Below, one piece after another: positions 4,248 to 21,728 of a DNA stretch of 64,000 nucleotides (within the stretch, counting starts at the first letter, position 1; every line of letters starts with the position of its first letter). The notes under the pieces were generated by a model. The model saw only the letters and a list, made by a program, of their open reading frames with translations. It was not told the origin of the DNA and did not search any database. Source of the DNA: Methanohalophilus halophilus (GTDB taxonomy: Archaea > Halobacteriota > Methanosarcinia > Methanosarcinales > Methanosarcinaceae); contig NZ_CP017921.1 in assembly GCF_001889405.1 (NCBI RefSeq), positions 1,750,057 to 1,814,056 on the forward strand, given 5' to 3'. The translations under genes were made by a program, and so were the position numbers.

Positions 4248-4450
4248 TAAATAATCGCCATGATAGTATATATATAAAACCTGTTTATATATTTATTTAG
4301 TTATTCAAAGTACAAATATATTAAAATGCATAAATATTATGCGCGATAATCAAATATACAATTAGGAAAAATGATAATAGTCAGGACCTTACTCCTGAAT
4401 AAAAAATAATCATATAACAGGTGTCATTAGTAGTAAGGGAGAAATGGATT
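4248..4450. promoter_or_regulatory. Divergent intergenic region with a 15-base dyad
   Basis: This AT-rich region separates the LivK-like gene from the operon starting at 4451 and must carry both promoters. It contains TATA-like tracts (around 4267-4276 and 4283-4296) and a perfect dyad, GCATAA-ATA-TTATGC, at 4328-4342, which could be an operator. No regulator is encoded beside it. The role of the dyad is inference. Confidence 0.3.
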
Positions 4451-4865
4451 ATGTTCGATAAAATATTACCACAACAAAAAAGCATGTCCACGAAATTAGG
4501 CGGGTTGCTTGTACTTATAGGAGAAACAATGTTCCTTTTTTCCTTGATGAACTTCCTGATGATCACCAGATTGCAATATTACAGCGAAGGCGATTCTTTC
4601 ATACGCACCCTGTTTCCTCACTATTTATTCTTTGTAATAGCCCTGTTCCTCGTAGCTTTTACCGGTATGTGGTTTGCCTATGTGTATATAATTCCCAGTA
4701 AGCAGAAATTCTCCCAACAGCAGGCAGTAAAGGATGCACGCAGCCCGATGTACAACCGTCTGATAGAAGTACATGAAGACCTCAAAGGCATTGACAGTAA
4801 ATTGCAGGACCTATCGGACAGGCTTGATGAACTTGAAAAAAACCAGCGTCCGGGAAAAGAAAGAA

Positions 4866-4876
<11 letters not shown>
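4451..4876 (+). CDS. Two-helix membrane protein with coiled-coil tail (unknown)
   Basis: I do not recognise this 141-residue protein. It has two predicted transmembrane helices (about residues 18-40 and 56-84), followed by a charged cytoplasmic tail with heptad character (residues 93-137, LIEVHEDLKGIDSKLQDL). The start is ATG 4451 because AAGGGAG lies 8 bases upstream; an in-frame GTG at 4421 has no such signal. The gene overlaps the metallophosphoesterase gene by 11 bases, so the two are translated from one message. It may tether or regulate the DNA/RNA enzymes encoded downstream, but nothing in the sequence proves this. Confidence 0.7.
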
Positions 4877-8527
<3,651 letters not shown>

Positions 8528-12837: not shown

Positions 12838-15030
12838 TTGGAGAAGAAACGGTTTAAGCCTATAGCAAAATGCAAAACTAAATCCACGGCAAATAACGAC
12901 AATGCTTACCATTTACAGGGACAAGAAATAATAAGTGGACAGGTATTAATTCACATGATGCAAAAGCTAATTTCAATATTCAACCCCCATATGAGTATTG
13001 CAACAAAAAATAACATCATTGATAAAATCGGGAAAAGACAAACTCAAATTATAATGCCCATTTCAAATCATTTATTAATGGAAATAAAAGGAAAATCCAA
13101 TACAAATGGAAATAAAAAAACAGCCACAACAATTGTAGATAGTGGTTTATGTGAAATCAAATCACATGCTCTTGCAGAGAAGATGGACACTCTCCTGACA
13201 GATGAATTTGGGAATCTGCAAGATCCAGGACTGTATCTGGAAGATTTTAAGAGAGACTTAATTGGTGGTTGTGCTTTTATATCAAGAAGCAAGCGGTGGA
13301 TTACCTGTGCAACTGATTTGTTAGGAGTGAAATCTCTATGGTATTCTACAGAAGATGGCTTTGCTGTTGCATCCGAAAAGAAATATCTTGCAATGGCTGG
13401 TTATTATAATATTGAAAAAGTTGACCCGCGAAGTACCCTTAGTTATGATACAGAAGAGGGGACATTACATACATACAGTGACTATGAACTGAAACCATCT
13501 GTTGAACCTGCAACAAAACAACCTGATGAAATCATAGAACAACTATATCGGCTGCTTGGGGATTCTGTCAGCAGGTGTCTTCCTCCTTCCAGGACAGGAG
13601 TTTTGTTTTCGGGAGGTGTGGATTCCACACTTGTAAGCATGTTGTGTAAAAAATATAGCAAGCAAGATATCTGTTGCTATGTAGCAGGACTTGAAAGTGA
13701 AATACAAGCACCCGATGTACAGCATGCACGAAAAATAGCAAACGAGCTGGATTTGCCGCTGAAAGTTATTGAAGTATCTCTTGAAGAGACAGAAGAAATC
13801 CTGAAAAAACTCGTTCCCCTGATAGAAACTACAAGTGTACCCATGGTTGGGGTTGCCCTGCCAACGTATATAGCAGCCAGGGCAGCAAAAGAGGATGGGG
13901 TCAGCGTTCTTTTTACAGGTAGCGGGGCAGATGAAATGTTCGGTGGCTATAACAGACACAAAAGAGCAACTGACCTTAACAATGAATGTCTGAAGGATAC
14001 ACTAAATATCCATCTGGAAGATACTTACAGGGACGGATTGATTGCATCCGAACTGGAACTGGACTTACGTTCCCCTTTCCTGAACAGGCATGTTGCAGAA
14101 TATGCCCTGGGAATTCCTGCTGCCCTTAAGCTTAATGAAAAAGGCAATAAGATGATACTGCGCCAGGTGGCTGAAAGGACTGGAATTGCTGCAGAATTTG
14201 CATTCAGGAGTAAAAAGGCTGCCCAGTATGGGAGCAAGTTTGACAGGGGTATCGAAAAACTGGCAAAACGAGCTGGTTATAAAAATAAAACGGATTATCT
14301 GAAGAACATGGAAAAAAACTACAAGCCCAAACTTGGAGTACTGTTCAGTTCGGGAAAAGATTGTCACTTCGCAATGTACAAAATGCAAGATGCAGGTTAT
14401 CCGATCAAGTGCCTGATCACAGTAAAAAGCAAAAATCCGGACTCCTATATGTTCCATACACCTAACATCAATATGGCATCCCTGCAATCCCAAGCCATGG
14501 GAATCCCCCTTCTGGAACAGGAAACCGCAGGGGAAAAGGAAGTTGAGCTGGATGACTTGAAAAAGGCAATCGTGAAGGCAAAAAAAGAATATGGGATCGA
14601 AGGAGTGGTAACCGGTGCCCTGTATTCAACTTACCAGAAAGAGCGAATCGAAAATATCTGTTCAGAACTCGGGATGCATGTGTATTCACCTCTCTGGCAT
14701 ATGAACCAGGAAGAAGAAATGCACAAATTGCTAGAAGAAAAGTTTCATTTCCTATTCAGTAGCATCGCAGCTTATGGTTTAAGCAACAAGTGGCTGGGTA
14801 AGGAAATTACCAAAAACGAGATTGAGGAACTGGTAAAACTGAATGGTAAAATCGGGCTGAATATTGCCGGGGAAGGAGGAGAATTTGAAAGTTTCGTTCT
14901 TGACTGTCCCTTATACTCCAAAAGAATAGAAATAAAAAAGAGCACTATCATAGATAGTGATGAGTATACTGCACGCCTTAATATAGAGGATGCTATACTT
15001 GTACAAAAGGAAAGGGTACAAAGGGAGTGA
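12838..15030 (+). CDS. Asparagine-synthetase-like / diphthine-ammonia-ligase-like fusion
   Basis: Two ATP-pyrophosphatase units are fused. Residues about 125-185 resemble a degenerate glutaminase domain (CATDLLGVKSLWY) without an N-terminal catalytic cysteine. Residues about 230-470 are an asparagine-synthetase domain with PP-loop LFSGGVDSTL and LFTGSGADEMFGGY. Residues 490-730 are a Dph6/MJ0570-type domain with a second PP-loop LFSSGKDCHFAMYK, EGVVTGAL, YSPLWH and NIAGEGGEFESFVLDCPLY. Dph6 amidates diphthine on elongation factor 2 with free ammonia. The asparagine-synthetase half might supply ammonia or work on another substrate; this is inference. The TTG start at 12838 sits inside a TATA-like tract (TATATAAATAA), so ATG 12955 or another downstream codon may be the real start. 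Confidence 0.85.
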   Translation: MEKKRFKPIAKCKTKSTANNDNAYHLQGQEIISGQVLIHMMQKLISIFNPHMSIATKNNIIDKIGKRQTQIIMPISNHLLMEIKGKSNTNGNKKTATTIVDSGLCEIKSHALAEKMDTLLTDEFGNLQDPGLYLEDFKRDLIGGCAFISRSKRWITCATDLLGVKSLWYSTEDGFAVASEKKYLAMAGYYNIEKVDPRSTLSYDTEEGTLHTYSDYELKPSVEPATKQPDEIIEQLYRLLGDSVSRCLPPSRTGVLFSGGVDSTLVSMLCKKYSKQDICCYVAGLESEIQAPDVQHARKIANELDLPLKVIEVSLEETEEILKKLVPLIETTSVPMVGVALPTYIAARAAKEDGVSVLFTGSGADEMFGGYNRHKRATDLNNECLKDTLNIHLEDTYRDGLIASELELDLRSPFLNRHVAEYALGIPAALKLNEKGNKMILRQVAERTGIAAEFAFRSKKAAQYGSKFDRGIEKLAKRAGYKNKTDYLKNMEKNYKPKLGVLFSSGKDCHFAMYKMQDAGYPIKCLITVKSKNPDSYMFHTPNINMASLQSQAMGIPLLEQETAGEKEVELDDLKKAIVKAKKEYGIEGVVTGALYSTYQKERIENICSELGMHVYSPLWHMNQEEEMHKLLEEKFHFLFSSIAAYGLSNKWLGKEITKNEIEELVKLNGKIGLNIAGEGGEFESFVLDCPLYSKRIEIKKSTIIDSDEYTARLNIEDAILVQKERVQRE

Positions 15031-21179: not shown

Positions 21180-21728
21180 ATGTGTATACCCATGCCAGCA
21201 AGAATACACGAAATCATAGAATCCAAAAGGCTTGTCATAAGGCCGCTGGAGGAGAAAGATTTTGCTGGTTTTTACAGGTTTATTTCAAATGATAAAGCTA
21301 CAAAATATTTTTTCTTCAGTCAAAAACCGGTATCCTATAAAGATAGCCGCAGGTTTTTCCGTAAAACGATGGAAAACTACGATGAACCAGACCAGGTCTA
21401 TGCCTATACTGTTGCAAAAAAGAGCAGTGATGAATTTGTCGGTTCTGTTGGAATGTTACCTGACCCGGATAAGGGAGCCTAGCAGGTATACTGGTCCATT
21501 TTACCAAAACACTGGAATCGGGGATTTGCAACCGAGGCTATCCAAATATTCTTGCATCACGCTTGCCGCAAACTGGATTGTAAGCAATTCATCGCTTTTT
21601 CACATAAGGACAACATTGCTTCCAGGAGAGTTGCAAAAAAAATCGGTATGAAAAATGAAGGACCTACAAGAGTAAAAGGGGTTGACCATAGACCCCTGCG
21701 TTATACACTGGACAATGGTGAACATTGA
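21180..21728 (+). CDS. GNAT acetyltransferase (RimJ/RimL type) with an in-frame TAG
   Basis: The frame of 183 codons encodes one GNAT domain: SKRLVIRPLEEKDFAGFYRF at the start, VAKKSSDEFVGSVGMLPDP, then the TAG codon at 21480-21482 (codon 101), then QVYWSILPKHWNRGFATEA, including the acetyl-CoA loop, and SHKDNIASRRVAKKIGMKNEG. Everything after the TAG is conserved family sequence in the same frame, ending in TGA. Either UAG is decoded as pyrrolysine, as in methylamine-using relatives, or a single CAG-to-TAG-type change has made a pseudogene. ATG 21192 is an alternative start. The substrate is unknown; RimJ-like enzymes acetylate protein N-termini or small amines. Confidence 0.72.

What the first reader, a model, noticed from the sequence alone, without database searches (positions are those of the whole stretch)
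21180..21728. GNAT acetyltransferase with a single in-frame TAG: possible new pyrrolysine protein
Seen: a 183-codon frame encodes a full GNAT domain, and the only interruption is TAG at 21480-21482. Conserved family sequence (QVYWSILPKHW, acetyl-CoA loop NRGFATEA) follows in the same frame up to a TGA. None of about 65 complete genes in the window ends in TAG, so TAG is avoided as a stop. Known: Methanosarcinaceae that use methylamines insert pyrrolysine at UAG in methyltransferases, and only a few other pyrrolysine proteins are known. Inference: either a non-methyltransferase pyrrolysine protein or a fresh nonsense mutation.
Basis: partly seen in the sequence, partly recalled or inferred. Interest (0 to 1): 0.82.

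Follow-up and report, generated by a model that had tools for sequence, protein, structure and literature searches.

The report
Acetyltransferase gene with conserved pyrrolysine codon
A methane-producing archaeon carries an ordinary-looking acetyltransferase gene whose internal TAG "stop" codon is kept in six related species and is almost certainly read as the rare 22nd amino acid pyrrolysine, probably as a harmless passenger rather than as part of the enzyme's chemistry.

Summary
Window 21180-21728 (+) is a complete GNAT (Pfam PF13302, E 1e-28) broken only by TAG at codon 101 and ending in TGA. It is not a fresh nonsense mutation: all six Methanohalophilus genomes with this gene have TAG at the same codon, and the frame beyond it is under the same purifying selection as the frame before it (pN/pS 0.26 and 0.23). 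The genome has a full pylTSBCD operon and in-frame-TAG mtmB. Only 2 of 199 sampled ORFs end in TAG, and mfnA (methanofuran synthesis) has a conserved in-frame TAG in the same six species. Best reading: UAG is decoded as pyrrolysine and a full-length 182-residue GNAT is made. Pyl probably has no special role. Codon 101 is variable (Tyr in the closest relatives, one base change away) and lies one residue before the catalytic-Glu position (invariant Gln102 here); a homologue in another genus has a separate TAG two codons upstream. This is a new member of a known kind: non-methyltransferase Pyl proteins such as Thg1 of Methanosarcina acetivorans. No peptide evidence was available, so decoding is inferred.

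The parts
21180..21728 (+). GNAT acetyltransferase gene, 182 residues if TAG is read as pyrrolysine, stop TGA 21726-21728
   Evidence: Translation; PF13302 over the whole domain; orthologues in five further Methanohalophilus genomes
21480..21482 (+). In-frame TAG, codon 101, proposed pyrrolysine codon
   Evidence: Same codon in 6 of 6 congeners with the gene
21483..21725 (+). Conserved frame after the TAG (codons 102-182): Gln102 at the catalytic-Glu position, acetyl-CoA loop NRGFATEA, C-terminal GNAT half
   Evidence: pN/pS 0.26 downstream against 0.23 upstream; Gln102 aligned with Glu102 of PA3944

Best explanation
The gene is an intact GNAT acetyltransferase in a Methanohalophilus species that decodes UAG as pyrrolysine. 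PylB, PylC and PylD make Pyl, PylS charges the CUA-anticodon tRNA-Pyl, and the ribosome inserts Pyl at codon 101, giving a full-length 182-residue enzyme; some ribosomes may still terminate there. The codon most likely arose by one base change from a Tyr codon (TAT/TAC to TAG) in an ancestor of six species and was kept by drift because UAG is a tolerated sense codon there. The site is variable, at the start of strand beta4, next to but not at the catalytic position. Shown here: pyl operon, conserved TAG, continued purifying selection, avoidance of TAG as stop, a second conserved in-frame TAG in mfnA, variability of the site. Inferred: actual Pyl incorporation, its efficiency, and its neutrality. 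The substrate of the GNAT is unknown.
For: Conserved TAG in six species. Purifying selection on both sides, with the same third-position bias of variable sites (27 of 46 and 21 of 35, Fisher P 1.0). Complete pylTSBCD, PylS in 8 of 8 genus genomes, mtmB with in-frame TAG in the genus. 2 of 199 ORFs end in TAG. mfnA with TAG at codon 41 in the same six species. Pyl measured in an MttB peptide of M. portucalensis (PMC4928046). Tyr codons at the site in the nearest homologues, other residues in remoter ones.
Against: No peptide or footprint data for this gene. One of six copies (M. profundi) has a 1-base deletion, so the gene may be dispensable, although that assembly also splits mfnA. Two of eight genus genomes lack the orthologue. 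Termination at UAG competes with decoding in Methanosarcina acetivorans (20-30% read-through of a reporter, PMC2933860).
Confidence: 0.85

Rival explanations
1. Pseudogene: the TAG is a nonsense mutation fixed in the common ancestor, and the gene has been decaying since.
For: M. profundi copy has a frameshift; citrate synthase in the same genus shows that genes do decay in this clade.
Against: Codons 102-182 are as constrained as codons 1-100; five of six copies have no further stop or indel; the cell has the means to read UAG.
Confidence: 0.07
2. Pyl at codon 101 is functional: it modulates the active site, or the UAG makes production of active enzyme depend on the Pyl supply.
For: TAG unchanged in six species while the wobble base of the codon before it varies; it is adjacent to the catalytic-Glu position; a homologue in another genus gained a TAG in the same loop.
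Against: Position variable in homologues, with Tyr, Ile, Ala, Thr, Asp, Met, Phe; about 60% of codons are invariant in the set, so lack of change is expected; TAG in the other genus is not at the same site.
Confidence: 0.07
3. Two polypeptides: translation stops at UAG and restarts downstream to make a separate C-terminal product.
For: Termination at UAG competes with decoding in Methanosarcina (PMC2933860).
Against: The first in-frame start codon after the TAG is TTG at codon 125, beyond the acetyl-CoA loop; the next is ATG157. The conserved segment 102-124 could not be made that way.
Confidence: 0.01

Closest known systems
tRNA-His guanylyltransferase Thg1 of Methanosarcina acetivorans (Pyl-containing)
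   Same: A non-methyltransferase gene that gained an in-frame amber codon in a pyl-bearing archaeon; Pyl reported as not essential for its activity (PMC2933860)
   Different: Reported for one species only, with Pyl physically observed; here the TAG is shared by six species but no protein has been seen
Methylamine methyltransferases MtmB, MtbB, MttB
   Same: In-frame UAG conserved across species in the same genomes
   Different: There Pyl is in the active site and required; here the position is variable and not catalytic
RimJ/RimL/SpeG-type GNATs (PF13302), for example PA3944 (6edd, 7kpp) and 3fbu
   Same: Fold and sequence family
   Different: The solved ones compared have no TAG-encoded residue; this protein has Gln102 where 3fbu and PA3944 have Glu
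Citrate synthase of Methanohalophilus mahii with amber codon (PMC3017947)
   Same: In-frame TAG in a non-methyltransferase gene of the same genus, proposed there as Pyl
   Different: Not conserved: only fragments are matched in several congeners

Membership tests
Pyrrolysine-containing protein | Genome encodes tRNA-Pyl (CUA), PylS and PylBCD | tested here: met
   L051: tRNA-Pyl 4820-4891, pylS 4988-6205, pylB 6202-7263, pylC, pylD to 9140
Pyrrolysine-containing protein | In-frame UAG conserved among orthologues | tested here: met
   6 of 6 Methanohalophilus orthologues
Pyrrolysine-containing protein | Coding constraint continues after the UAG | tested here: met
   pN/pS 0.26 downstream, 0.23 upstream
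Pyrrolysine-containing protein | Pyl residue observed in the protein | not testable with these tools
   Needs mass spectrometry; no peptide data held
Organism that uses UAG broadly as a sense codon | UAG nearly absent as terminator, and conserved in-frame UAG in several unrelated genes | tested here: met
   2 of 199 ORFs end in TAG; GNAT, mfnA and mtmB carry conserved in-frame TAG. The sample is 14% of the genome, and pylB still ends in TAG
GNAT acetyltransferase (PF13302) | Full-length domain match above the curated cut-off, acetyl-CoA loop present | tested here: met
   101.3 bits against 25.4, profile 1-138 of 138; NRGFATEA loop
GNAT acetyltransferase (PF13302) | Acetyltransferase activity | not testable with these tools
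   Needs an assay; substrate unknown
Gene with a PYLIS-type downstream RNA structure | Stable stem-loop just after the UAG | tested here: not met
   MFE -16.4 against shuffle mean -19.9, z +1.1; the element is reported as not required for Pyl insertion (PMC9499178)

The most novel reading that the evidence does not exclude
Pyl at codon 101 is functional in this GNAT: its electrophilic ring beside the active site alters substrate choice, or the UAG makes active enzyme depend on the Pyl supply and so links an acetylation to methylamine growth.
Probability: 0.07. Interest if true: 0.75.

Novelty: new member of a known kind. Interest (0 to 1): 0.48.

Why it matters
Pyrrolysine is still widely described as dedicated to methylamine methyltransferases. 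A GNAT and MfnA with TAG conserved through six species indicate that UAG works there as a tolerated sense codon over evolutionary time, with constraint measurable on both sides of the codon. Standard annotation will call such genes truncated or pseudogenes. The case can be tested directly by a peptide search in Methanohalophilus proteomes.

Tried and rejected
Fresh nonsense mutation or sequencing error: rejected by six-species conservation. Downstream RNA insertion element: the 101 nt after the TAG fold no better than shuffles (z +1.1). Overlapping +1-frame ORF 21262-21651 as the cause of conservation: it has internal stops in three of five intact congeners, and the substitution pattern follows the GNAT frame. 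Pyl in place of the catalytic Glu: considered because GNATs often have Glu near this point, but explicit alignment puts Glu102 of PA3944 on Gln102, as the E102A entry confirms. Citrate synthase as a second conserved Pyl case: not conserved, only fragments in several congeners. KaiC-like ATPase with TAG (L053:4231-4992): the closest copy (94%) has no TAG, so a recent change. DRG-type GTPase frame in L056: the TAG lies upstream of the matched domains, so not counted. One search used a wrong family accession and says nothing. Reports I recall on archaea that use TAG broadly as Pyl were not found in the library, so I could not check whether this gene is already listed in one of them.

Full report
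What is there. The frame 21180-21728 on the + strand encodes 182 residues and is interrupted only by TAG at codon 101 (21480-21482), with TGA as its last codon. Read through, it is a full PF13302 GNAT domain, 101.3 bits against a cut-off of 25.4, with the match running across the TAG. The closest solved relatives by profile are 3fbu, 2fsr, SpeG enzymes and PA3944. The predicted model (mean pLDDT 66, so moderate) matches RimL- and PA3944-type GNATs. A flavodoxin-like gene, a methyltransferase gene and a small downstream gene flank it in the three long congener loci examined (the first two names are my reading of the sequences).

Where it is. The window lies in a single-contig genome of 2,022,959 bases.

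Is the TAG a mutation of this strain? No. Six of the eight genus genomes hold the gene (the others at 93-95% DNA identity) and all six have TAG at codon 101. The codon before it differs in its third base among species (GCC, GCT, GCA) while TAG does not change. Because about 60% of codons are invariant in this set, that identity alone is not strong. The stronger result is that selection continues past the TAG. Pooled pN/pS is 0.23 for codons 1-100 and 0.26 for codons 102-182, and the third-position bias of variable sites is the same on both sides (27 of 46, 21 of 35, Fisher P 1.0). Five of six copies have no other stop or indel. The sixth, M. profundi, lacks one T in a T run; its mfnA match is also split between two frames, so assembly error is a fair possibility.

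Can the cell read UAG? [quoted passage not shown] PylS is present in all eight genus genomes, and mtmB matches with one in-frame TAG occur in all eight. A Pyl-bearing MttB peptide has been measured in M. portucalensis (PMC4928046). TAG ends 2 of 199 ORFs of at least 150 aa in 278 kb: pylB, and one ORF with tandem TAGTGA. Small samples of four other family members show 1-4%.

Is it alone? No. In the same sample mfnA, the tyrosine decarboxylase gene of methanofuran synthesis, has TAG at codon 41 inside the matched domain (TIGR03812, 523 bits). The TAG is at the same place in the same six species, while the two outlying genus members have Ala. It is the only match over the family cut-off in each genome, so termination there would remove a core cofactor enzyme. 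This is the best independent argument that UAG is routinely decoded in this clade.

What does the residue do? Probably nothing special. At codon 101 the nearest homologues have Tyr (TAC or TAT, one base from TAG) and more distant ones Ile, Ala, Thr, Asp, Met or Phe. Alignment places Glu102 of PA3944 (mutated in entry 7kpp) on Gln102 of this protein, which is invariant in the 12 aligned homologues. Codon 101 is its neighbour at the start of a strand, beside a low-confidence turn. The M. burtonii-sized genome has a TAG in its 33% identical homologue two codons upstream of the homologous site and keeps Tyr at the site itself, which points to a separate gain in the same loop. This fits drift of a tolerated sense codon, as reported for Thg1 of M. 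acetivorans, where Pyl is present but not essential for activity (PMC2933860).

Alternatives. Decay is disfavoured by the selection result. Split translation is disfavoured by the absence of any start codon before TTG125. A dedicated RNA element is not supported, since there is no unusually stable fold. A functional role for Pyl is not excluded; I give it 7%.

Novelty. Non-methyltransferase Pyl proteins are known (Thg1, transposases), amber-interrupted genes of M. mahii have been noted before, and I recall, but could not read, recent reports of archaea that use TAG broadly as Pyl. This is therefore a new member of a known kind, with unusually good evolutionary support for one gene. Protein evidence is the missing step.

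Noticed in passing
L051:7261-7263 (pylB stop); L039-L046 and L104-L133: pylB ends in TAG in 34 of 38 Methanosarcinaceae checked, one base before the pylC start (for example TAGAATG), although only 1-4% of sampled ORFs end in TAG; the four exceptions, all genus g10, have an ATGA overlap. A TAG stop in three species (TAA in M. barkeri) was already reported (PMC2933860). A possible feedback, read-through of pylB disturbing coupled pylC initiation when Pyl is plentiful, would be testable.
   Followed up: partly
L055:13438-14580, TAG at 13558: mfnA, tyrosine decarboxylase of methanofuran synthesis, has an in-frame TAG at codon 41 conserved in six Methanohalophilus genomes and absent from G002 and G007.
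   Followed up: yes
L070-L076: Citrate synthase is intact in G002 and G004, has one TAG in M. mahii, and only fragments are matched in G000, G001, G005 and G006. The published idea that the M. mahii amber codon is pyrrolysine (PMC3017947) may instead describe a gene in decay.
   Followed up: partly
L053:4231-4992, TAG at 4420: KaiC-like ATPase with one in-frame TAG in this genome; the 94% identical copy in G006 has no TAG.
   Followed up: yes
L020 (G024:C1:808041-808553): The homologue in the M. burtonii-sized genome has its own in-frame TAG two codons upstream of the homologous position.
   Followed up: partly
L054:1022-1876: TAG-read-through frame that joins a piece of a glycosyltransferase domain to a piece of a UDP-sugar dehydrogenase C-terminal domain, with three TAGs; looks like gene debris.
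   Followed up: no
PMC8211752, pyrrolysine section: The review says Methanohalophilus lacks the Pyl system, citing Fricke et al. 2006, a Methanosphaera genome paper; it looks like a name slip and is contradicted.
   Followed up: yes
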